A stretch of 33,175 nucleotides of DNA, taken from the IMG/VR virus record IMGVR_UViG_3300024243_000057, positions 1 to 33,175 of that record, one strand, 5' to 3'. This DNA is from a virus. Below, piece by piece: positions 9,908-31,125 of the stretch (position 1 is the first letter of the stretch; each line of letters begins with the position of its first letter). A program made the translations under genes and the position numbers. The notes under the pieces were generated by a model. It was not told the origin of the DNA. It was given only the letters and a program-made list of their open reading frames with translations, and searched no databases.

Positions 9908-11441
9908 CGAAATAGAGCAACATGCCAAGGCGATGGCGGTCTATCACGCCTCTCCCGCAGCCTGGGTGATAGATCATATTGACATTGACTTAGCTCATTA
10001 CAGAAGCGAGGAGTCTCTTCGGGCGTGGCTGGCGACAGTCCCGCCCGATTCGCATGAGTGGTGCCGTAAGCAACTGGCAGCGGGTAAACTTTGCTTAGAT
10101 GATGGTGTATCCTATCAAGCAGAGATGCTTGACAAGTTGGCAAAGCCTGGATGGTATGCTTTCAAGTGGGCAAATGGCACTTCCAAAACGACCATAGCAG
10201 CTCTGTTTATCCTATATATGATGGATGTGTATACGGATCTGCGTATACTAACGACAGCAGGGACATGGAGCCAACTACAAGAGCAGCTATGGCGCGAGGT
10301 GCCGCTGTGGTTATCACGGACCAAGTTTGATATAACCGCACAAGGGCATATTGGCAGAGACTCTATTCACATCCCTCCTCCCTATGATGCTCATACGATC
10401 AGCCGTGCAGCATACAAGGCAGCCAACTTTGAGGGCATCCACGCCAAGCACGTAGTCGTATTGGTCGATGAGGCCAAAGCTATCGCTCCGGACATTTATG
10501 ATGCTATCCGTAGGATTCTGCGCGGCGGCGAGGATGCTAAGTTGTGGCTTATTCTACTCAGTTCACCAGGTAGCCCATCTGGTCCTTTTTATGATCTTTG
10601 CACCGGCTCAGAAGGTAGTCGAGTGCAAGTCCTATCTTTATCGGCCTATGAGTCTGAGCGCGTATCCTTGGATCAGATCCACCAAGATGCGTTAGAGTTA
10701 GGCGAGGACTCCCCTCTCTTTATCGCAATGGATTGCGGTGAGTTTCCTGATGAGGGCGAGGACTCTGTTATTCCTTTGTCATGGGTGCAAGCCAACGTAG
10801 ATCGCAAGGTAGAGGGCTTCACGTTCAAGTCTTTAGGTGTGGATATGTCGTATTCGCTGAGAGGTGATAGGACTTGCCTTATTGGGATCTTTGGGCGACA
10901 GGTGCGAATATTGGATACTTACAGAGGACGAGAGCCGTCCTATACCGCAGGGAGGATACAGGACTTAAACAAGATCCATCAGTTCCATGCTATCGGTATT
11001 GATGATCCTGGCAAGGGTGTGGTAGATATGTGCCGACAAAATGGGCTGAAGATACAAGACGTTGTTTTTGGGTCTAAGGCTTATACGGACTCTCGTTATG
11101 TTAATCTCAAGGCTGAGATGTATTTCAAGCTGCGAGCTGAATTAGAGGCGGGATATAAAGATCCCGGCAATGAAGAATGCGGATTGTCATTACCTAACGA
11201 TAAAACCCTGCACCATCAGTTGACAGTACAGGGCTATAGATACGATCTGAAGAATAGAATACTTATTGAGTCTAAGGATGAACTGCGAAAAAGAGGCGAG
11301 TCATCCCCTGATTATGCTGATGCGTTGGCTATTGCTAATCTGATGAGAGCATCCCGCACTAACCGCATCCTAACAGAAACCAACCGCACCACGGCAAGAC
11401 ATACGGGCGCAGGGGCTTCTGTAAGAAAGGCTGAGTTTTAG
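9897..11441 (+). CDS. terL: terminase large subunit (packaging ATPase-nuclease)
   Basis: A 514-residue protein. The ATPase domain shows a variant Walker A (WANGTSKTT, about 91-99), Walker B VVVLVDEA (about 186-193) and the coupling motif LLSSPG (about 220-225). The nuclease domain is RNase H-like with GVDMSYSLRGD (Asp316), IGIDDPG (about 367-372) and a late DYADAL acidic motif. The enzyme drives DNA into the procapsid and cuts it. Its start overlaps the clamp gene end, so they are coupled. The canonical GxxxxGK[ST] is altered to NGTSKT, as occurs in some TerL lineages. Its 3' end overlaps the convergent helicase-methyltransferase gene by four bases. Confidence 0.93.
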   Translation: MLDSEIEQHAKAMAVYHASPAAWVIDHIDIDLAHYRSEESLRAWLATVPPDSHEWCRKQLAAGKLCLDDGVSYQAEMLDKLAKPGWYAFKWANGTSKTTIAALFILYMMDVYTDLRILTTAGTWSQLQEQLWREVPLWLSRTKFDITAQGHIGRDSIHIPPPYDAHTISRAAYKAANFEGIHAKHVVVLVDEAKAIAPDIYDAIRRILRGGEDAKLWLILLSSPGSPSGPFYDLCTGSEGSRVQVLSLSAYESERVSLDQIHQDALELGEDSPLFIAMDCGEFPDEGEDSVIPLSWVQANVDRKVEGFTFKSLGVDMSYSLRGDRTCLIGIFGRQVRILDTYRGREPSYTAGRIQDLNKIHQFHAIGIDDPGKGVVDMCRQNGLKIQDVVFGSKAYTDSRYVNLKAEMYFKLRAELEAGYKDPGNEECGLSLPNDKTLHHQLTVQGYRYDLKNRILIESKDELRKRGESSPDYADALAIANLMRASRTNRILTETNRTTARHTGAGASVRKAEF

Positions 11442-13612
11442 AATAGGCTCGTCTGTGTCCCCGGTCCTGTCCCGGCGCTGGCTATATTCTTACATGCTGC
11501 CCTATAATACGATTCCTTCAGTTCGCATCCCACAAAACGCCTTCCCAATCCAATAGCCTGATGCCCTTCTGATCCGATTCCCATGAAGGGTGAGCATACC
11601 ACATCTCCCTCATTGCTCCACAGCTTTATCACCCGCTCAATGGTCCCGAGTTGCAGGGGGCAGATATGCCGCTCGTCCTTCTCGTCCCGCCCCTCAGCGA
11701 CATTGAGGGTGTCGCTTTCTCTTATATTATACCAGATGGGTCTTGCCCACTCAATCCATTGGTTGTTGGTTATGTCTGGCTTGATGGGTTCCGCATTATC
11801 TCCCGGCTTACGAAATACAAGGATGTAGTCAGCCAGTGCCGGTCTAAGCCATGATGCATCTTTTTTCAGTTGCGTGAAGAGGAGAGATTTAGCCTTAGTT
11901 CTGATGGCCTGTGCCTGGGGATCTTTATCAATGCAAACTTCCCCATGATAGATAAACCCATGTTCTTGGAATAACTCAATCGTCATGCCCCTGAAGTCCT
12001 TCAGGCCGATATACCCATCTCTTACCAGCATAGCAGGGACTTGGGCAACGTGTACCGCACAATTGCGCCCCGGTTTAGTGATCCGCAATAGGTGATCGGC
12101 AATGATGCCAAAATGATCCATGAAAGTGTCTTTGTCGTCCGAGTTGCCTATGTCTCTGGGCGTTGGAGAATAGGTATAGAGGCTCAGGAACGGAGGAGAG
12201 AACACGGACAACCCAACCGAATCATCCTCTATTTCAGCCATACGGATACAGGAATCACCAAGCATCAGTTTATAATCATGGGTCTCAACTGTGTCTTCGT
12301 TATATTTCTCCACTTTTTCTCCTCCGTCAAGTTCCTCTTTTTCAAATTCCTTGATGTTTTCTATCAGCTTATCCTTCAGGAATGTAGCCATCTTCTCTTT
12401 CCTTTTGATGTTTTTGAATATTGCACTCTCGATGTCTGTCAGGACAATATGGGCATCCACTGGATGAGTCTGTCCGAACCTATAGGATCTACGGATGCAC
12501 TGATAGTAAGTCTCCCACGAATCATTTAAACCCATGAAAACCATCTTATGGGCATTCTGAAAATTCATACCAAAGCCCCCGATCTTGGGTTTGGTGACAA
12601 GGACTCTGATCTTACTATCCTGAAAATCTTCAAAAACCTGCGTCTTGTGTTCAGCGTCATCAGCCCCCGACACCTCAACGGCCCCAGGTATGATCTTTCC
12701 CAGCTTGGTTGATTCGTCGTTGAGGCCGCACCATACAATCCACTGGTCCTCATCGTTGATGAGATCGCAGACTGCCACCATGCGCTCTTCTACGGTGCCC
12801 TTACGTATTCTGGCCCTATCAGAGATACCTTTCATACCTGTGAAAAAAAGGGCATCATCAGGGCGGTAGTCTGTCTTTACAAACAACGGATTGATGTTAA
12901 GCGGAGGAAGGATATAGCCATCATCATCATATCCAAGATCAGATGGTAGTTGAATGAACATGCCCCACGATGCCATCCAGCGGAAGAAGGCCTCATGGGC
13001 ATGGCCCTTGAGCCGCCATCCATCATCGTCGTGAACGAAATATGTTGCCAGCATATCGTTTCTTGTTTTGACCCCAAGAAACTCTGCATGATTAGCCATC
13101 TCCGTTATATCATTGGGTGCTGGAGTGGCCGTACAGCATAGCCGGTAGGGCGTTTTACCGAACTGATCAAGCAACTTCAGGCGTGTTTTTCCATCCAGAG
13201 ACTTCAGAATAGAACTCTCGTCAAGGACTACCCCTTGAAATCTGCTTGTGTCTAACTTTGTCACCATCTCATAGTTGGTAATTTGTATTCCATCAGTCAT
13301 CTCGGCATTATTACGGATATAAGGCAAGTCAATGCCGATGATTTTCGCTTCTCTCTGTGTCTGTCGTGCCACTGACAATGGAGCAACAATAAGGGTATTG
13401 TCAGTCATCAGCCGCCCCCACTCAAGCTGCATCCTTGTCTTTCCAAGGCCGGTGTCGGCAAAGATTGCAGCACGACCCTTGCGAATTGACCATTGCGTCA
13501 GATCGCGCTGGAACGGGAACAGCGATGGGTGAATCTCATCCCGCTCCACATGCTTGCCTGTTTCGTGCGTTATTGATTGCTTATCCTCCAAGAACTGTGC
13601 ATAGTCTTTCAT
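11438..13612 (-). CDS. SNF2/superfamily-2 helicase fused to DNA methyltransferase
   Basis: A 724-residue two-enzyme fusion. The helicase part covers about 30-420: Walker A ADTGLGKTR (52-60), DEAD-box equivalent LDES (130-133), TATPAPN (161-167) and motif VI QCIRRSYRFGQ (371-381). The methyltransferase part is about 445-715: LMLGDSC, motif IV SPPF (472-475) and, near the end, SPFMGIGSEGHQAIGLGRRFVGCEL (from about 674) carrying the AdoMet-binding motif. The motif IV before motif I order is a beta-class N4-cytosine/N6-adenine layout; SPPF leans to N4-cytosine. It probably couples DNA translocation to modification, protecting phage DNA. It has its own promoter and is the last gene of its module. 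Confidence 0.88.
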   Translation of the reverse strand: MKDYAQFLEDKQSITHETGKHVERDEIHPSLFPFQRDLTQWSIRKGRAAIFADTGLGKTRMQLEWGRLMTDNTLIVAPLSVARQTQREAKIIGIDLPYIRNNAEMTDGIQITNYEMVTKLDTSRFQGVVLDESSILKSLDGKTRLKLLDQFGKTPYRLCCTATPAPNDITEMANHAEFLGVKTRNDMLATYFVHDDDGWRLKGHAHEAFFRWMASWGMFIQLPSDLGYDDDGYILPPLNINPLFVKTDYRPDDALFFTGMKGISDRARIRKGTVEERMVAVCDLINDEDQWIVWCGLNDESTKLGKIIPGAVEVSGADDAEHKTQVFEDFQDSKIRVLVTKPKIGGFGMNFQNAHKMVFMGLNDSWETYYQCIRRSYRFGQTHPVDAHIVLTDIESAIFKNIKRKEKMATFLKDKLIENIKEFEKEELDGGEKVEKYNEDTVETHDYKLMLGDSCIRMAEIEDDSVGLSVFSPPFLSLYTYSPTPRDIGNSDDKDTFMDHFGIIADHLLRITKPGRNCAVHVAQVPAMLVRDGYIGLKDFRGMTIELFQEHGFIYHGEVCIDKDPQAQAIRTKAKSLLFTQLKKDASWLRPALADYILVFRKPGDNAEPIKPDITNNQWIEWARPIWYNIRESDTLNVAEGRDEKDERHICPLQLGTIERVIKLWSNEGDVVCSPFMGIGSEGHQAIGLGRRFVGCELKESYYRAACKNIASAGTGPGTQTSLF

Positions 13613-14434: not shown

Positions 14435-14779
14435 TTATGAGAATTCATAACCACTGAACGAATATCCCTCTGCGTCGGTCCAGGTATTATCACTCGGATA
14501 TTCCTTTGCGTGGTGGTGCTGATCGGTTCTCTTTGACTTTACCAAGTATAAGAAATCAGCAATAGTTATTTGGTCGCCCTCATCGCTCCATATCTCTCCT
14601 TCCGTCAGTATATCCTTCCACTGTTTAAAGGATATAATCTCAAAATCATTATATCCTTCATATTTCCGACACCCGTGAAAGTTAAATTGCCATCCCCATG
14701 ATGCTTTGCCAATGTGCAGCTCATCATATCGCCCACACTCAGAGCAGATATTAGTTCGGTGGTAGTAGTTGGTTCCCAT
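14435..14779 (-). CDS. conserved phage protein of the MGTNYY family
   Basis: A 114-residue protein that starts MGTNYYHRTNICSECGR and continues HIGKASWGWQF. This opening, with a CxxC pair and an HIGK-x-S segment, is a widespread phage and bacterial family of unknown function that I recognise from its N-terminus. A zinc knuckle is likely. The gene is coupled to the upstream one by TAATG. Confidence 0.7.
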   Translation of the reverse strand: MGTNYYHRTNICSECGRYDELHIGKASWGWQFNFHGCRKYEGYNDFEIISFKQWKDILTEGEIWSDEGDQITIADFLYLVKSKRTDQHHHAKEYPSDNTWTDAEGYSFSGYEFS

Positions 14780-15372
14780 TACTCTCCTCCGCTAAATAGT
14801 AGATCCATCAGTGTCTTTGTCTGCCACTCTTGTTCAGCAGCCCTCGCAGCAGCCCTCGCAGCATCCACCGCAGCAGCCCTCGCAGCAGCCCTCGCAGCAT
14901 CCACCGCAGCATCCACCGCAGCATCCACCGCAGCAGCCACCGCAGCATCATCAATATCACCTACTGCAAAAGCTTCGGCTACCTCTATTGCCTTCCGTGG
15001 TCTATCGTCGCTTGGATAATCCTTCTCATAGATCGGCAGCACTCGTCTGGCGCACTCGGCAGCGAACAATCGCGCAGAGCAGTCATCCCATGTCCATAGG
15101 TGCTTGGTCAATCGTGCTTCTCTAACGATGATCTTATTGCTCTCATCTATCCTATCACCGCGACACTCGGCAAGATAGATATTCGGTCCCAACCATTCTA
15201 TCAGATCTTTCTCCCGGCAGAGGTGATACCCGTTTTGGCAGGGTATCAGGTTGCCCTGTATCGGCGGCATCCATTTACCGGGCCGATCATCGTCAGTCGG
15301 CAGATTCCACTCGCCAGTGCCACCATTGGCCGGTCGGTGATCTTCATTCAAAACCTTAAATAGACGTTCCAT
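14779..15372 (-). CDS. DUF7666-like protein with alanine-rich repeat tail
   Basis: A 197-residue protein. The front (about 1-140) fits the DUF7666-like pattern of a conserved GYHLC segment followed by IYLAEC, a later ARLTKHLWTWDDCSARLFAAECARRVL and a basic end. Residues about 142-180 are a repeat of four-residue units (D/A-AA-V/R) with almost only Ala, Asp, Val and Arg, forming a long helix. Function unknown; the family is frequent in phage accessory regions. The repeat is likely to vary in length between relatives. Confidence 0.65.
   Translation of the reverse strand: MERLFKVLNEDHRPANGGTGEWNLPTDDDRPGKWMPPIQGNLIPCQNGYHLCREKDLIEWLGPNIYLAECRGDRIDESNKIIVREARLTKHLWTWDDCSARLFAAECARRVLPIYEKDYPSDDRPRKAIEVAEAFAVGDIDDAAVAAAVDAAVDAAVDAARAAARAAAVDAARAAARAAEQEWQTKTLMDLLFSGGE
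14836..14948. repeat. 12-base tandem repeat encoding the alanine-rich helix
   Basis: About nine units of a 12-base motif, on the plus strand roughly GCAGC(C/A)(C/T)(T/C)CGCA, mixed between two variants. It lies inside the 14779 gene and preserves frame. Opposite-strand open frames across it are by-products. Confidence 0.85.
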
Positions 15373-16216: not shown

Positions 16217-16585
16217 TCAACTCTCCTTGTGAAGTGCACGAAAGGCGGTTCCTCTACGTCTGAGCATCTTGCTTGCTTGGGCCTTGGGCAGTTTACGGTT
16301 ACGGCAATCGTTGATATGCTTGATGATGGCCTTTTTGCGGATACCGACGTATCCAGCAACCTTACCAGCGAACTCAGCGACGGGTCGATTACCACGGGCA
16401 GTATTGCACTTGCGGCAACAGGTGACGAGGTTCTGAGGGCTGTTGTTACCGTCTTTGCTGCGCGGCTGGAGATGATCCAGGCTCAACTCAGCGCCATCCT
16501 CTACCGTCGATCCGCAATAAGCGCAAGAAAGGCCATCTCTGAGGTAAATTGCTAATCTGTGGTGGTCGCTGATCCATCGTGCCAT
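16217..16585 (-). CDS. HNH endonuclease
   Basis: A 122-residue protein. The HNH core is textbook: YLRDGLSCAYCG (CxxC), LSLDHLQPRSKDGNNSPQNLVT (first His, then the conserved Asn) and CRKCNTARG (second CxxC). A basic C-terminal helix pair follows. It may be a free-standing (homing-type) nuclease or, as in many HK97-type phages, an aid to packaging, though it is not beside the terminase. It is the first gene behind a sigma-70 promoter and has an AAGGAGA site. Confidence 0.88.
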   Translation of the reverse strand: MARWISDHHRLAIYLRDGLSCAYCGSTVEDGAELSLDHLQPRSKDGNNSPQNLVTCCRKCNTARGNRPVAEFAGKVAGYVGIRKKAIIKHINDCRNRKLPKAQASKMLRRRGTAFRALHKES

Positions 16586-16648: not shown

Positions 16649-17341
16649 TTATTGGTAATCAATGGCTTTTTTAATTCTCGCAGCAAAAAACTCAGCCCAT
16701 TGTGGTACAACACTATTACCTAATCCTCTAATTCTGTCCATCCTTCTCGGAATCCCATCATCCATTCTACCCATGTTGGGTTCCTGTAATAGCCAGGCTT
16801 CTCTTTTATTGCTCGTTTGCACCCGGCTCCATTCTTCATCATCGATGGACAAGATTGGTTCCCCTTTGTAGTCGGAGTAGGCAACCAAGCATATTCTTTT
16901 TCTAAGGTGTGGCGCTCCAACGGTTGCTGCTGATAACACCGTCCATTCTGCATCATACCCGATTTCGGCCAAGCCCCCAAGAATAGTTCCGAATCCCCGG
17001 TTAAGCAACGCTGATACGTTTTCCACAAGGATGAATCGTGGTCGTAGTAGGCGAATGATTCGGAGCATTTCAAACCACAGTTGCGATTTTTCACCATGAA
17101 TACCTCTAGTTTTTCCAGCATTACTTATGTCTTGACATGGGAATCCACCGATCAATACATCAACTGGCTCTAAGGTGGCACATTTTATATCTGTATGGCA
17201 AGGTATCTCAGGCCAGTGTTTCCTCAAAATATTCTGACAAAACGGATCAATCTCACATTGCCATTTTATCTCAAATCCAGCTCTCTCAAAGCCAATATCC
17301 AAGCCACCAATACCTGAGAATAGAGATCCAACTGTATACAT
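16649..17341 (-). CDS. C5-cytosine DNA methyltransferase (copy 1, short)
   Basis: A 230-residue enzyme from ATG 17341, which overlaps the upstream stop as TGATG. Motif I is GSLFSGIGGLDIGFE, motif IV carries the catalytic Cys in GGFPCQDIS, motif VI is VENVSALL, motif VIII is HLRKRICLVAY, and motifs IX/X are RIRGLGNSVVPQWAEFF. Only about 40 residues separate motif VIII from IX, so the target-recognition region is unusually small. Its N-terminal 45 codons are nearly identical in DNA to copy 2 at 24521. Probably modifies phage DNA against host restriction. An extra reading frame overlaps its C-terminal half. Confidence 0.92.
   Translation of the reverse strand: MYTVGSLFSGIGGLDIGFERAGFEIKWQCEIDPFCQNILRKHWPEIPCHTDIKCATLEPVDVLIGGFPCQDISNAGKTRGIHGEKSQLWFEMLRIIRLLRPRFILVENVSALLNRGFGTILGGLAEIGYDAEWTVLSAATVGAPHLRKRICLVAYSDYKGEPILSIDDEEWSRVQTSNKREAWLLQEPNMGRMDDGIPRRMDRIRGLGNSVVPQWAEFFAARIKKAIDYQ
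16720..17121 (-). CDS. overlapping frame, methyltransferase-associated WVEWxMG-type protein
   Basis: A 133-codon frame lying wholly inside methyltransferase copy 1, shifted +1. It carries the signature of a known phage/bacterial protein type: SLWKTYQRCLTGD, WPKSGMMQNGRCYQ, LPTPTT, and NPTWVEWMMGFREGWTELED at the end. ATG 17121 has a weak ribosome-binding site; an in-frame ATG at 17097 follows AGAGGT and is a better start. The same frame with the same signature exists in copy 2. Whether it is translated, or is the trace of an old frame change, cannot be decided here. Confidence 0.45.
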   Translation of the reverse strand: MLEKLEVFMVKNRNCGLKCSESFAYYDHDSSLWKTYQRCLTGDSELFLGAWPKSGMMQNGRCYQQQPLERHTLEKEYAWLPTPTTKGNQSCPSMMKNGAGCKRAIKEKPGYYRNPTWVEWMMGFREGWTELED

Positions 17342-17526
17342 CACGACAAGATACCTGTTGTTTCATATTTTCTCATCACTACCTCAGCCGTTGCCTCATC
17401 CTTAAAGCCATCGCAAGCCATGCACAGGCGAGAATAATTACCTGTCTGAATATGGATGGCTACTATATAATATCTTCCGTTCTTTTCGTCCTGATCTACT
17501 CCGAGTAAAAAAAGGCGCTTGTCCAT
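17341..17526 (-). CDS. small hypothetical protein ahead of methyltransferase copy 1
   Basis: A 61-residue protein (starts MDKRLFLLGVDQDEKNGRYY) after AAGGAGA. The first half is beta-like, the second a short helix. No family recognised. It is the first gene behind a strong promoter and overlaps the methyltransferase start. Confidence 0.6.
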   Translation of the reverse strand: MDKRLFLLGVDQDEKNGRYYIVAIHIQTGNYSRLCMACDGFKDEATAEVVMRKYETTGILS

Positions 17527-24330: not shown

Positions 24331-24524
24331 TCAGTCACTTCCCACACCGTCCTACCCTCGGCTGTCCAGCGTCGAAAATTGATAGATCGTTGACGATTAT
24401 GGGATAAAGGCACATTGAATCGCACCTCTGACTGTTCAGGCACACTGCCCAACAGATTGCCCATCTGTGATTCTGTCAACATCTTACCATTCTTCAGCCG
24501 CAGCAATTCATCTCTTTTATTCAT
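24327..24524 (-). CDS. small hypothetical protein behind methyltransferase copy 2
   Basis: A 65-residue protein (starts MNKRDELLRLKNGKM). It opens with a basic helix and ends in a beta-like basic half (SINFRRWTAEGRTVWEVTE). Overlaps the stop of the methyltransferase gene by four bases. No family recognised. Confidence 0.55.
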   Translation of the reverse strand: MNKRDELLRLKNGKMLTESQMGNLLGSVPEQSEVRFNVPLSHNRQRSINFRRWTAEGRTVWEVTE

Positions 24525-25369
24525 TCTATCCTCCCATTAATCTCCCTTTCAGTTATGATGTTATATAGTCTACGGGCAAAAAACTCAGCCCATTGCGGAA
24601 CAACACTATTACCTAACCCTCTAATTCTGTCCACCCTTTTGGGTATCCCATAAGCCACTCTACCCATGCTGGGTTTACTCCAAAAGTTAGACAATCCCAA
24701 TTGTTCTTCCTTCTCCATTCTTTGGCTGAAATATGGTCCCACTGTGGATCTGTTGGGATCTTCCCTTGGGATTCCAATGGGCTTCTCCCTTTGAGCATCT
24801 TTCGTCCCTCTATCTCTGTGATGACCCCCTTTTTTATCATTGCCCTCAATATCCTCACGTTGCCCTCGCAAGGTCTGTCTGTGGAGACAGTTGGGGTAGG
24901 CCATAATTGCCACTCGTTTTCGCAACTGTGGAGATCCAACTGAGGAAGCTGATAGTGTGTACCACTCCGCATCATACCCGATGTTGGCAAGGTTTTCGAG
25001 GACAGTGGATAATCCTCTCCGAATAAGTCCAGGGACGTTTTCAATGAAGATCCACCTCGGATGAATTGTTTTTATAATTCTGAAAAATTCAGACCAGATT
25101 TTCGACTTAGGGCCAGTGATCCCTCTTTTTCTCCCAGCAATAGATACGTCCTGACATGGGAATCCACCGATCAATACATCTACCGGCTCTATGTTATCAA
25201 TATTCATTTTTGTTACATCATCATGGCAAGGTATCTCAGGCCAGTGTTTCCTCAAAACATTCTGACAAAACGGATCAATCTCACATTGCCATTTTATCTC
25301 AAAGCCAGCCCTCTCAAAGCCAAGATCCAAGCCGCCAATACCTGAGAATAGAGATCCAACTGTATACAT
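24521..25369 (-). CDS. C5-cytosine DNA methyltransferase (copy 2)
   Basis: A 282-residue enzyme. Motif I GSLFSGIGGLDLGFE, motif IV GGFPCQDVS with the catalytic Cys, motif VI IENVPGLI, motif VIII QLRKRVAIMAY and motifs IX/X RIRGLGNSVVPQWAEFF are all present. The region between VIII and IX is about 95 residues, twice that of copy 1, and unrelated, so target specificity probably differs. The N-terminal third is almost identical to copy 1. GGGAG precedes ATG 25369. The second methyltransferase of this type in the window implies several protected sites. Confidence 0.93.
   Translation of the reverse strand: MYTVGSLFSGIGGLDLGFERAGFEIKWQCEIDPFCQNVLRKHWPEIPCHDDVTKMNIDNIEPVDVLIGGFPCQDVSIAGRKRGITGPKSKIWSEFFRIIKTIHPRWIFIENVPGLIRRGLSTVLENLANIGYDAEWYTLSASSVGSPQLRKRVAIMAYPNCLHRQTLRGQREDIEGNDKKGGHHRDRGTKDAQREKPIGIPREDPNRSTVGPYFSQRMEKEEQLGLSNFWSKPSMGRVAYGIPKRVDRIRGLGNSVVPQWAEFFARRLYNIITEREINGRIE
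24613..25044 (-). CDS. overlapping frame in methyltransferase copy 2, WVEWLMG-type protein
   Basis: A 143-codon frame inside methyltransferase copy 2, shifted +1 exactly as in copy 1. Signature pieces: TSLDLFGEDYPL, LPTSGMMRSGTHYQLP, LWPTPTVS, and NPAWVEWLMGYPKGWTELEG at the end. The longer middle follows the longer recognition region of the main frame. The only early start is TTG 25044, with GAGGTG eight bases before it; an in-frame stop lies eleven codons upstream. Translation is unproven, but the protein type also exists as stand-alone genes. Confidence 0.45.
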   Translation of the reverse strand: MKTSLDLFGEDYPLSSKTLPTSGMMRSGTHYQLPQLDLHSCENEWQLWPTPTVSTDRPCEGNVRILRAMIKKGVITEIEGRKMLKGRSPLESQGKIPTDPQWDHISAKEWRRKNNWDCLTFGVNPAWVEWLMGYPKGWTELEG

Positions 25370-26548: not shown

Positions 26549-27379
26549 TTAAGGGAGCGTCAAGGGCAGACTCTGTTGAAATGTTTTTTCAATCTTGTTC
26601 TTCTTCTTGAGATTATCCACTGCCCACAGAGGCCTCAAGTTTTTCAATGCCCAAGCCTCTTGAAAGTGTAGATCCTCAGATTTTGAAAAAGAAAAGGCTG
26701 TGATTGGGATGATGTGATCTATGTGCCACTCGCCCATATTATCCCATGACATCCCTGGCTGAAATTGTTTTGATAAGTGCTTCATGAGATCGCCAAGCGT
26801 ATAATCCACGAGGGATTCCCAATGTCGGCCAGCCTTGTTCTCTTTAATGCTTTTATAGATACCAACTCTGACACGGGCAGATATCTTATGTCTCGGATCG
26901 TTAGCATACTTATCTGTCATACTCTTTTTGTTTTTTTCGTGGTTGGCATAATACCAATCTAATTTTTGCTTCCTATACTTATCTGGATTGGCAGCATATG
27001 CCGCTTTTCTCTCCTCCGACATTTTTTTGCTATTCTCGCTCCACCATTTCCTCCTTTCTGGTAGTCGTTCTTCTTTAGTCCGGTCACGATACGCCTTGAA
27101 CTTAATCAGGTTCGCCTCCCTGTTTTTCTCGTAATATTTTCTATGCGCTGCCATGCACTTGTCTTTATTAGCCCAATAATAAGCCTTAGACCGCACCTTT
27201 ATTTTTTCCTTGTTTTTCTGGTAATGATCAGCAGAAGCCCGTTTCTCTTTCTCCTTTCTTTTCAATTTCCTCTTTTCTTGGCAATCTTTGCATCTCCATA
27301 AGTATCCATCTTTCCCATATTGGTTTTCCTCAAAACAGGTATAATTTTTAGTTATACCACACTCGGCACACTGTTTCAT
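26549..27379 (-). CDS. HNH endonuclease with repetitive basic middle
   Basis: A 276-residue protein. ATG 27379 follows AAGGAGA and overlaps the RHH gene stop; a longer open frame upstream reads across that gene. A zinc knuckle opens the protein (CAECGITKNYTCFEEN then CKDCQEKRK). Residues about 40-170 are a run of roughly ten-residue basic repeats with aromatic pairs (HYQKNKEKIK, YYEKNREANL, YRDRTKEERL). The C-terminal HNH core is WHIDHIIPITAF, with NLRPLWAVDNLKKKNK near the end. This layout is common in phage free-standing HNH nucleases. Probably a selfish or recombination-promoting element. Confidence 0.87.
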   Translation of the reverse strand: MKQCAECGITKNYTCFEENQYGKDGYLWRCKDCQEKRKLKRKEKEKRASADHYQKNKEKIKVRSKAYYWANKDKCMAAHRKYYEKNREANLIKFKAYRDRTKEERLPERRKWWSENSKKMSEERKAAYAANPDKYRKQKLDWYYANHEKNKKSMTDKYANDPRHKISARVRVGIYKSIKENKAGRHWESLVDYTLGDLMKHLSKQFQPGMSWDNMGEWHIDHIIPITAFSFSKSEDLHFQEAWALKNLRPLWAVDNLKKKNKIEKTFQQSLPLTLP

Positions 27380-27540
27380 TTTACTTCTCCTTCTATAACT
27401 TCCCGCGCTTTGATGAAATCCTCCAATGCGATTCGGACTATGACCTGTTTGGGCTTTCGGAGTTCCCATTTAAGTGTTTCAAGCTCCTCAAGCAGATCCA
27501 TAGGTAGCTGGAACGTCACCATCTTCATTCTTTCTTTCAT
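27376..27540 (-). CDS. ribbon-helix-helix regulator
   Basis: A 54-residue protein from ATG 27540 with an ideal AAGGAGG site. MKMVTFQLPMDLLEELETL followed by KPKQVIVRIALEDFIKAR is a classic RHH pattern: a beta strand (VTFQLP), then two helices. It overlaps the HNH gene by four bases and lies just behind its own promoter. RHH proteins of this size usually repress their own operon as dimers; it is also a candidate ligand for the palindromes. Confidence 0.75.
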   Translation of the reverse strand: MKERMKMVTFQLPMDLLEELETLKWELRKPKQVIVRIALEDFIKAREVIEGEVK

Positions 27541-29248: not shown

Positions 29249-29259
29249 AGGAGATACTA

Positions 29260-29658
29260 ATGGCTGCACCCAGTGGTGCGTATGAAAACGTGTTGCTTGC
29301 TAAGTCGATGACGGTTTCGGGGAATGATCTGTCTGCATCCACCGACATCCACATCTTCTGTAAGTTGGGCGACGCAGAGAATGATACTGTTCCGGCTGCG
29401 TCGGGCGATTTGCCTATTGGCATCTCTCTCGGAACGGGGTCGGATGGACAAGATATTAATGTCGCGCTGGTAGGCATCAGTAAGATTCGCCTTGCCGGTA
29501 CTGTCAAGCGGGGTAATCCCCTCAAGCCGACCTCGGGAACAAACGATGGTCGAGCGGTCAAGACCACTCATATTGGAGCGCATGGTGCTATCGCTATGCA
29601 AGACGGTGCGTCGGGTGAAGTTATCGCTTGCTTGATCACTCAGGGCTTCGGGACCTAA
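29260..29658 (+). CDS. capsid decoration protein (DUF2190-like)
   Basis: A 132-residue protein after AAAGGAGA. Gly- and Ala-rich beta-sandwich pattern with PIGISLGTGSDGQDINVALVG and IRLAGTVKRGNPLKP matches DUF2190-type capsid cement proteins that sit on the capsid surface. Position between protease/scaffold and major capsid genes is standard for this family. Confidence 0.75.
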   Translation: MAAPSGAYENVLLAKSMTVSGNDLSASTDIHIFCKLGDAENDTVPAASGDLPIGISLGTGSDGQDINVALVGISKIRLAGTVKRGNPLKPTSGTNDGRAVKTTHIGAHGAIAMQDGASGEVIACLITQGFGT

Positions 29659-29670
29659 GGAGATAATATA

Positions 29671-30603
29671 ATGCCTGGACAGCCGCAACTTTCGAGCACG
29701 TATATCCAGAAGGCGATTGACGATGCTGCCATCGCCTATGGTAATTCCGCATATATCCTTGACCAGATCGCACCTATCGTAGATGTTGATCAGCGCCAAG
29801 GTAAGTATTTCACTTTTGACCGTGGGGAATCGGTTCAGGATGCCGCCTCTCCCAATCGCCAGCCGAGTTCTGATGCGCCGCGTGGTGGGTATACCATTGG
29901 CAATGAGTCGTATGACTGCAAGGAGATGGCTTTCGCCCATGAGATCCCCGATGAAATCGCTGCACAGGCCGATCCGGCTATCCAGCCGTTTAGACGGGGC
30001 ATTGACTTCTGTATGGAGAAGGCTCTGTTGCGTCGTGAGCGATTGGCTGCGGCCACCTTCTTCGCCGCCTCTGTTTGGGGGACCGATGCATCCGTTTCCG
30101 ACACTTGGGATGATTATGTCGACAGCGATCCTGCTGATGATGTAAACACGGGTAAAACCACCATCGTAAAAGATACGGGCTTTGATCCCAACGTGCTGGT
30201 GATGGGACGCGAGGTATGGGATAAGCTGATCCTCCATCCCGATGTCCTTGATCGTATCAAGTATACCAAAGCAGCTACGCAGGATGAGGTTGCTGGTATG
30301 CTGGCCGCATGGCTGGGTCTGGAGCGCGTCGTTGTGGGTAGTGCTTCCTACAATGCCGCTGCTGAAGGAGCTACCGTTGATCGTCAGTTCATCTGGGGTA
30401 AAGATGCTGTTCTTCTGTATGTCCCGGCGGCTCCCGCCAAGGATGTGCCGAGTGCCGCTTATACCTTCCAGTTGGCTGGTATCGAAACGCGCCAGTGGCG
30501 TGAAGAGTCTCCAAAGCAGAGCGTCGTTGAGGCGTCTATCTGCGCTGATCCAGTTGTCACCGCTTCCAAGGCTGGCTATCGGTTCGCATCTGTCGTGGCT
30601 TAA
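29671..30603 (+). CDS. major capsid protein
   Basis: A 310-residue protein after AAGGAGA. It starts MPGQPQLSSTYIQKAIDDAAIAYGNSAYILDQIAP, typical of Mu-like/HK97-fold major heads with an N-arm. KYFTFDRGES and EMAFAHEIPDE fit E-loop and P-domain starts; the helix MEKALLRRERLAAATFF is the spine; NVLVMGREVWDKLILHPDVLDRIKYT and the ETRQWREESPKQ end are A-domain features. Protease, decoration and head genes are adjacent, which supports the call. It forms the icosahedral shell. Confidence 0.88.
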   Translation: MPGQPQLSSTYIQKAIDDAAIAYGNSAYILDQIAPIVDVDQRQGKYFTFDRGESVQDAASPNRQPSSDAPRGGYTIGNESYDCKEMAFAHEIPDEIAAQADPAIQPFRRGIDFCMEKALLRRERLAAATFFAASVWGTDASVSDTWDDYVDSDPADDVNTGKTTIVKDTGFDPNVLVMGREVWDKLILHPDVLDRIKYTKAATQDEVAGMLAAWLGLERVVVGSASYNAAAEGATVDRQFIWGKDAVLLYVPAAPAKDVPSAAYTFQLAGIETRQWREESPKQSVVEASICADPVVTASKAGYRFASVVA

Positions 30604-30615
30604 GGAGGGATTATA

Positions 30616-31125
30616 ATGGCAAGACCGACGATTAATCCCAGAGGTACTAATCTCGCTGGTGCGTATATTGACGGCCAGATCCGTGGTCCGGCACTCGGAA
30701 CTAACTCGGTGGGACTGACACAGGTGCCTACGGTGCTGGAGCGGAGTATTTCTATTGCTTCCGTTGGTGTCACTCCCGCCACGGGCCATGCGCCCGTTGT
30801 GTTCCGCGCCCCGGCTTCGGGTGCAACGGTTACAGCAGTGTATATTAACCCCGGCTCTGTACAGAATCACGCTGCCAACGAGGCTGACGTTTGGACCTTT
30901 CGAGTGAAGAATACCACCACAGGCAATAATCTAAATGCCCTTGGTGCCAGCTTGAGTAATACCACGCTGGCCGCAACGGCATGGAAGTCTATTCCGGTGG
31001 ACAACGGCAATTCGACAGTCCTATCCGGCCATACTCTTAGTCTGTCTATGGGTATTTCCGGTAGCCCTGCCGCTTTGCAGAATCCGGTATGTTTGGTCGA
31101 GTGGGTGCCTTATAGCAACGCATAA
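30616..31125 (+). CDS. probable virion structural protein
   Basis: A 169-residue Gly/Ala/Thr/Asn-rich beta protein after AAGGAGGGA. It starts MARPTINPRGTNLAGAYIDG and has no recognised domain. Last gene before a strong terminator. Likely a second decoration protein or a tail/head fibre component; composition and place are the only evidence. Confidence 0.55.
   Translation: MARPTINPRGTNLAGAYIDGQIRGPALGTNSVGLTQVPTVLERSISIASVGVTPATGHAPVVFRAPASGATVTAVYINPGSVQNHAANEADVWTFRVKNTTTGNNLNALGASLSNTTLAATAWKSIPVDNGNSTVLSGHTLSLSMGISGSPAALQNPVCLVEWVPYSNA

What the first reader, a model, noticed from the sequence alone, without database searches (positions are those of the whole stretch)
16720..17121. Second protein-like frame hidden inside cytosine methyltransferase copy 1
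In the reverse +1 frame of the methyltransferase gene there is a 133-codon run with family-type segments (WPKSGMMQNG, LPTPTT, NPTWVEWMMGFREGWTELED). I recall this protein type as stand-alone or methyltransferase-adjacent phage genes, so it is not random noise. An internal ATG at 17097 has a plausible ribosome-binding site. Either the locus is dual-coding or the two proteins share history through a frame change.
Basis: partly seen in the sequence, partly recalled or inferred. Interest (0 to 1): 0.78.

Follow-up and report, generated by a model that had tools for sequence, protein, structure and literature searches.

The report
Methyltransferase hidden in two frames
One stretch of phage DNA encodes two different proteins in two overlapping reading frames, and together they most likely form a single DNA-marking enzyme (a cytosine methyltransferase); one such enzyme, M.EcoHK31I, was already known, and this report shows that the same arrangement is conserved in a wide range of phages and bacteria.

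Summary
The +1 frame inside the C5-cytosine methyltransferase gene (16649-17341, minus strand) is a real second gene (beta, 16720-17097 or 17121). The second methyltransferase copy in the window (24521-25369) carries its own nested +1 gene (24613-25044), which the finding did not mention.

When the codons are shuffled without changing the methyltransferase protein, the beta-family score falls by 7-8 SD and no shuffle leaves the frame open (0/1000). Four-fold sites inside the overlap diverge about half as much as those outside, or less. In 312 of 314 fetched loci the beta-like frame is +1 of a C5-methyltransferase on the same strand. The other two are single-chain fusions. None stands alone. 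Eighteen canonical C5-methyltransferases show no beta.

Alpha holds motifs I-VIII and X and lacks motif IX. Beta ends in a motif-IX segment (NPTWVEWMMGFREGW). A single-chain relative carries the alpha and beta parts in one frame (hhalign E 2e-40 and 9e-17).

This is the layout described for M.EcoHK31I, a two-polypeptide C5-methyltransferase: larger subunit I-VIII and X, small polypeptide IX. Best reading: alpha and beta are separately translated and assemble into one enzyme that methylates the phage's own DNA. No activity was tested. It is a new member of a known kind.

The parts
16649..17341 (-). alpha subunit, copy 1: C5-cytosine methyltransferase with motifs I-VIII and X (230 aa from ATG 17341, which overlaps the TGA of the upstream ORF as TGATG; GTG 17344 is the mechanical start)
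   Evidence: PF00145 E 5.6e-47, covering only profile 2-181 of 324; TIGR00675 3.4e-39; AlphaFold pLDDT 86, Z 26.6 to M.HhaI
16720..17097 (-). beta subunit, copy 1: nested +1-frame gene, 125 aa from ATG 17097 (upstream alternative ATG 17121, 133 aa)
   Evidence: phrog_1008 E 7.2e-18; shuffle z 8.0; AGAGG 5 nt before ATG 17097
16723..16782 (-). motif-IX segment NPTWVEWMMGFREGWTELED in the beta frame; the same DNA gives EPNMGRMDDGIPRRMDRIRG in the alpha frame
   Evidence: alignments A1/A5; hhalign to a single-chain methyltransferase
16700..16723 (-). motif X (LGNSVVPQ) in the alpha frame, immediately after the beta stop
17015..17149 (-). catalytic motif IV (GGFPCQ, from 17149) and motif VI (ENV, to 17015) of alpha copy 1; motif VI lies inside the overlap
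   Evidence: invariant columns in A2/A6; coordinates
24521..25369 (-). alpha subunit, copy 2 (282 aa, 61% identical to copy 1)
   Evidence: TIGR00675 3.5e-41; alignment A6
24613..25044 (-). beta subunit, copy 2: nested +1-frame gene, 143 aa, TTG start with GAGGTGG 7 nt upstream, ending NPAWVEWLMGYPKGWTELEG
   Evidence: phrog_1008 1.8e-12; shuffle z 7.2

Best explanation
Each of the two methyltransferase loci is a dual-coding gene for a two-polypeptide C5-cytosine DNA methyltransferase of the M.EcoHK31I kind. Frame 0 makes alpha: SAM binding, the PCQ and ENV catalytic motifs, motif VIII and motif X. It has only a short, unordered linker (copy 1) where a canonical enzyme has its recognition domain and motif IX. 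Frame +1, started internally (ATG 17097 in copy 1, TTG 25044 in copy 2), makes beta. Beta carries the PTPT-rich variable segment and motif IX, the helix that normally packs the recognition domain on the catalytic domain. Alpha and beta then associate into one active enzyme, with beta contributing to target recognition, probably to modify the phage's own DNA against host restriction. Shown here: both frames code and are constrained; beta is found only with this alpha subfamily; alpha lacks motif IX and beta has it; the two are parts of what some relatives encode as one chain. Inferred: separate translation, assembly, specificity role, anti-restriction purpose.
For: Universality: in 253/253 entries (251 loci plus the two window copies; 230 distinct genes) beta is in the +1 frame of alpha on the same strand; 59 of 61 further loci likewise. 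Coding beyond the alpha shadow: 230/230 distinct genes beat all 100 synonymous shuffles; mean stops 3.6 in shuffles against 0. Constraint: divergence at alpha four-fold sites is 0.35 inside against 0.67 outside at 60-70% alpha identity, and 0.10 against 0.43 at 80-90%. Motif split: IX in beta and X in alpha is the dominant pattern (187 of 234 distinct genes with both motifs strictly matched), IX-to-X distance constant at 62 nt. Negative control: 18 canonical C5-methyltransferases have no beta, while all 12 with the truncated PF00145 match have it at +1. Single-chain relative L314 = alpha (hhalign E 1.7e-40) + beta C-terminus (E 9.3e-17) in one frame. Internal starts: a Shine-Dalgarno match of 4 or more in 89% against 64% of shuffles, 5 or more in 60% against 33%. 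Structure: alpha aligns to M.HhaI over 215 of 230 residues (Z 26.6), residues 186-201 low confidence. Precedent: M.EcoHK31I large subunit has motifs I-VIII and X, small polypeptide has motif IX (PMC3404938).
Against: No expression, binding or activity data. The beta model folds poorly alone (pLDDT 66, pTM 0.35) and gives no structural match, so the docking is unproven. PMC3404938 places the predicted recognition domain of M.EcoHK31I in the large subunit; here the alpha linker of copy 1 is short and unordered, so who reads the target is not settled. That M.EcoHK31I beta sits in an alternative frame of the alpha gene is my recollection of the 1995 report, which is not held.
Confidence: 0.9

Rival explanations
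1. The second frame is only a shadow: conserved methyltransferase codons force a similar +1 translation in all relatives, and nothing is made from it.
For: A real shadow exists: synonymous shuffles of the methyltransferase still score a median of about 35 bits against the beta model.
Against: Real scores exceed every shuffle in 230/230 genes and the frame is always open; four-fold sites are held in the overlap only; 18 canonical C5-methyltransferases show no such frame.
Confidence: 0.02
2. The ribosome shifts +1 from alpha into the beta frame, giving a fused protein rather than a separate beta.
For: The shift is always +1, and in phiBT1-type loci (L006, L007) such a shift would join motifs I-VIII to IX-X in one chain.
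Against: In copy 1 the beta frame opens right after an in-frame stop just upstream of 17124, and conserved beta sequence begins before alpha motif VI, so any shift would delete motifs VI-VIII. Motif X lies in frame 0 after the beta stop. Internal starts with Shine-Dalgarno matches are enriched.
Confidence: 0.05
3. Beta is a separate regulator or inhibitor (or an independent anti-defence protein) that happens to be overprinted on the methyltransferase gene.
For: The N-terminal half of beta has no counterpart in the aligned part of the single-chain relative and could have its own role; beta may be made in a different amount from alpha.
Against: The beta C-terminus is motif IX of the same enzyme, alpha lacks motif IX, and no beta was found without alpha.
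Confidence: 0.05
4. The locus is a decayed methyltransferase, with the second frame a relic of a frameshift mutation.
For: Frame exchanges do occur in the family (L251, L292, L314).
Against: Both frames are intact and constrained in two diverged copies of one phage and across hundreds of genes; catalytic motifs are intact.
Confidence: 0.01

Closest known systems
M.EcoHK31I (E. coli, YGGCCR), a two-polypeptide C5-methyltransferase (Lee, Kam and Shaw 1995, cited in PMC3404938)
   Same: Large polypeptide with motifs I-VIII and X, small polypeptide with motif IX (PMC3404938). From memory, the small one is encoded in an alternative frame within the large one's gene, as here.
   Different: Phage-borne, two copies in one window, no restriction gene seen beside them, target unknown; alpha of copy 1 is short, with hardly any variable region. 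The M.EcoHK31I sequence itself was not available for comparison.
M.AquI (CYCGRG), a split C5-methyltransferase
   Same: Catalytic motifs I-VIII in one polypeptide, motif IX in a second, smaller one (PMC3404938).
   Different: In M.AquI motif X is with motif IX in the small subunit; in the window it is in alpha. The phiBT1/JangDynasty relatives (L006, L007) do have IX and X together in the +1 frame.
PHROG family phrog_1008 ('DNA methyltransferase')
   Same: Beta of both copies belongs to it by score (7.2e-18, 1.8e-12).
   Different: The family name does not say that its members overlap another gene or what they do; Pfam and NCBIfam gave no match for beta.
Cluster F1 mycobacteriophage methylase with the ShiLan/HNH insertion (PMC11855218, 2025)
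   Same: Our locus from F1-type phage Hades (L005, gp69 methyltransferase) shows the +1 beta frame; that the paper's methylase is the same gene is inferred from the cluster.
   Different: [quoted passage not shown] the passages read do not mention beta, and a term search found no mention of M.EcoHK31I.

Membership tests
C5-cytosine DNA methyltransferase (PF00145/TIGR00675), alpha | Motif I, PCQ (IV), ENV (VI), RxR (VIII) and overall family score | tested here: met
   PF00145 5.6e-47, TIGR00675 3.4e-39 and 3.5e-41; catalytic residues invariant
M.EcoHK31I-type two-polypeptide C5-methyltransferase | Large polypeptide carries motifs I-VIII and X but not IX | tested here: met
   PF00145 match stops at position 181 of 324; motif X LGNSVVPQ present, linker low confidence
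M.EcoHK31I-type two-polypeptide C5-methyltransferase | Motif IX is in the small polypeptide | tested here: met
   NPTWVEWMMGFREGW / NPAWVEWLMGYPKGW in beta; profile match to a single-chain methyltransferase
M.EcoHK31I-type two-polypeptide C5-methyltransferase | Small polypeptide encoded in another frame within the large one's gene (my recollection of the 1995 report) | tested here: met
   +1 frame in both copies and in 312 of 314 loci
M.EcoHK31I-type two-polypeptide C5-methyltransferase | Predicted recognition domain lies in the large polypeptide (PMC3404938) | tested here: inconclusive
   Copy 1 alpha has only a short low-confidence linker; beta carries the PTPT-rich segment; no DNA-contact data
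M.EcoHK31I-type two-polypeptide C5-methyltransferase | Both polypeptides required for methylation | not testable with these tools
   needs protein or plasmid assay
M.EcoHK31I-type two-polypeptide C5-methyltransferase | Sequence similarity to M.EcoHK31I itself | not tested
   its sequence was not found in the material available here
M.AquI-type split C5-methyltransferase | Motifs IX and X both in the small subunit | tested here: not met
   Motif X of both window copies is in alpha; met only in relatives such as L006 and L007
   0 of 314 loci; distant forms beyond the search reach not excluded

The most novel reading that the evidence does not exclude
The dual-coding alpha/beta methyltransferase is one of the broadest and most tightly constrained same-strand nested gene pairs in prokaryotes and phages. 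Its halves pass between split, nested and single-chain forms by small frame changes. Beta has an N-terminal half born by overprinting on motifs VI-VIII, with its own role, for example setting target specificity or enzyme amount.
Probability: 0.35. Interest if true: 0.65.

Novelty: new member of a known kind. Interest (0 to 1): 0.5.

Why it matters
If right, a very common phage gene annotated as one 'DNA methyltransferase' (or a hypothetical protein) makes two required proteins from one stretch of DNA. Annotation usually keeps only one of them, and neither Pfam nor NCBIfam recognised the second. Cloning only the annotated ORF, with its codons recoded, would be expected to give an inactive enzyme. 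The family also offers hundreds of natural examples of two functional proteins sharing the same bases, useful for studying overprinting and how overlapping genes arise and dissolve.

Tried and rejected
Shadow hypothesis: tested by synonymous shuffles, codon-site divergence and canonical controls, and rejected. Stand-alone or fused beta: looked for in 314 loci; none stand-alone, two single-chain. Frameshift fusion: considered and rejected for the window copies on frame geometry. AlphaFold model of beta alone is weak (pLDDT 66, pTM 0.35), and its Foldseek search gave only noise (best E 4.6), so no fold is claimed for beta. phmmer of beta against PDB sequences: chance antibody hits only. Pfam and NCBIfam: no match for beta. 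The 1995 M.EcoHK31I paper is not held. Further paper searches for phage examples of this overlap found none. A start-codon scan for copy 2 returned nothing because its beta starts inside the model's first block; it was read by eye.

Full report
What is there. On the minus strand, the ORF 16649-17344 encodes a C5-cytosine methyltransferase (alpha). The true alpha start is probably ATG 17341, which overlaps the stop of the upstream ORF as TGATG and matches the ATG start of copy 2. A second methyltransferase copy at 24521-25369 (61% identical protein) has its own nested +1 ORF at 24613-25044 ending NPAWVEWLMGYPKGWTELEG. The window is a virus record with phage terminase, portal and capsid genes.

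More than chance. A conserved protein casts a shadow in its other frames, so I shuffled synonymous codons within each methyltransferase, keeping its protein and codon pool, and scored the +1 translation with a beta model built without window sequences. Copy 1: 133.4 bits against 45.8 +/- 11.0 (z 8.0); copy 2: 93.3 against 18.8 +/- 10.4 (z 7.2); neither frame stayed open in any of 1000 shuffles. Over 230 distinct genes the real frame beat all 100 shuffles every time; the shadow alone has a median of about 35 bits and 3.6 stops on average. In pairs of relatives, alpha four-fold sites differ at 0.35 inside the overlap against 0.67 outside (60-70% alpha identity), 0.29 against 0.59 (70-80%) and 0.10 against 0.43 (80-90%). 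In this frame arrangement an alpha third position is a beta second position, so this is the signature expected of beta coding.

Who else has it. A tblastn of beta finds 263 phage records, including Mycobacterium, Stenotrophomonas, Salmonella, Bacteroides, Synechococcus and Streptomyces phages, and 15 plasmids. In all ten phage loci first examined, beta is +1 to alpha. Of 253 entries (phage records, IMG/VR by alpha, IMG/VR by beta, GTDB genomes by beta, and the two window copies) all 253 are +1, 204 of them fully nested. With 61 further loci fetched by phiBT1- and JangDynasty-type beta queries, 59 are +1 and two are single-ORF. None is stand-alone. The GTDB loci include Patescibacteria, Planctomycetota, cyanobacteria, pseudomonads, actinobacteria and archaeal contigs. 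As a negative control, 30 C5-methyltransferase loci from 20 bacterial genomes fall into two clean groups: 18 with no beta in any frame, and 12 whose PF00145 match stops near position 160-190 and which all have beta at +1 (71-223 bits). Some sequences recur between collections, so counts of loci are not counts of independent events.

What the two frames are. Alpha carries the invariant PCQ, ENV and RxR residues and motif X, but no motif IX. Its AlphaFold model is confident (pLDDT 86) except residues 186-201 between motifs VIII and X, and it aligns to M.HhaI over 215 of 230 residues, Z 26.6. Beta ends in NPxWVEWLMGxPxGWT, which corresponds to motif IX (canonical form, from general knowledge: LTPRExaRLxGFPdxw). 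The beta start of this motif lies 62 nt before alpha's motif X in nearly all loci, and the dominant pattern is IX in beta, X in alpha (187 of 234 distinct genes by strict patterns; most others miss a pattern by a residue or are cut). The same DNA that reads WVEWMMGFREGWTEL in beta reads GRMDDGIPRRMDRI in alpha; both are conserved.

The proof that beta belongs to the enzyme is in relatives with other frame arrangements. In phiBT1 and JangDynasty, alpha stops after motif VIII and the +1 frame carries IX and X. In L251 motifs IX and X are both in the alpha frame and PF00145 then matches over positions 2-322. In L314 one ORF carries everything: the alpha profile aligns to residues 5-171 (hhalign E 1.7e-40) and the beta profile to 250-338 (E 9.3e-17). 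L314 and L292 still keep a beta-like N-terminal stretch in their +1 frame over motifs VI-VIII, as expected if they arose from a two-frame ancestor by a small frame change. The N-terminal half of beta, encoded over motifs VI-VIII, is not part of the single chain and looks overprinted (inference).

How it works (inference beyond this point). Beta is most likely started internally: ATG 17097 has AGAGG five bases upstream, and TTG 25044 in copy 2 has GAGGTGG seven bases upstream. Across loci a start with a Shine-Dalgarno match of at least four bases is present in 89% against 64% of shuffles. A +1 frameshift cannot explain copy 1, because the beta frame opens after a stop just upstream of 17124 and its conserved part begins before alpha motif VI, so a fused product would lack motifs VI-VIII. 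Alpha and beta then assemble: PMC3404938 states that M.EcoHK31I consists of two polypeptides, the larger with motifs I-VIII, X and the predicted recognition domain, the smaller with motif IX, and that M.AquI is split with IX-X in the smaller subunit. [quoted passage not shown] That its small polypeptide lies in an alternative frame of the large one's gene is from my own memory. For a phage, the likely purpose is self-modification against host restriction; no restriction gene was seen next to either copy, though this was not searched exhaustively.

Comparison and novelty. By arrangement the window loci are M.EcoHK31I-type and not M.AquI-type, because motif X is in alpha. Direct sequence membership with M.EcoHK31I could not be tested. 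The kind is known since 1995; these are new phage members. What a specialist may not expect is the breadth, the strength of the double constraint, the absence of any Pfam or NCBIfam match for beta, and that a 2025 study of a cluster F1 phage methylase (inferred to be the gene seen here in phage Hades) does not mention M.EcoHK31I, nor the beta frame in the passages read (PMC11855218).

Limits. No expression, interaction or activity was tested. Beta's own model is poor and its fold search was uninformative. Loci came mostly from best-hit lists, so rarer arrangements may be under-sampled.

Noticed in passing
24521-25369 and 24613-25044 (-): The second methyltransferase copy in the same phage carries the same nested +1 gene; the two beta proteins are far more diverged than the two alpha proteins (39% against 61%).
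   Followed up: yes
11438-13612 (-): A single ORF matches a DNA helicase at its N-terminus and a DNA methyltransferase of another kind at its C-terminus, a second type of DNA modification gene in this phage.
   Followed up: partly
16217-16585 and 26549-27469 (-): An HNH endonuclease gene and an endonuclease VII-like gene lie near the two methyltransferase copies; possibly homing endonucleases.
   Followed up: partly
L205:1647-3161, L243:1272-2180: Some beta proteins hold several [LWF]PTP repeats; the alpha frame over the same DNA in L243 shows repeated AN/SNS-like segments, so repeat units seem to expand in both frames at once.
   Followed up: no
L314, L292, L293: Single-chain methyltransferases that still keep a beta-like N-terminal ORF in the +1 frame, apparently caught after a frame change.
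   Followed up: partly
29257-30870 (-): A 537-codon open frame runs antisense across the capsid genes; probably a by-product of codon bias, not tested.
   Followed up: no
14779-15372 (-): A protein with an AAVDAA-type alanine-rich repeat tract; the repeats also leave long open frames on the opposite strand.
   Followed up: no
window 24608-24676 against Phage C72C1 (L315): 68 bases at the beta motif IX / alpha motif X overlap are 88% identical to an otherwise unalignable phage, and that phage has the +1 frame too.
   Followed up: yes
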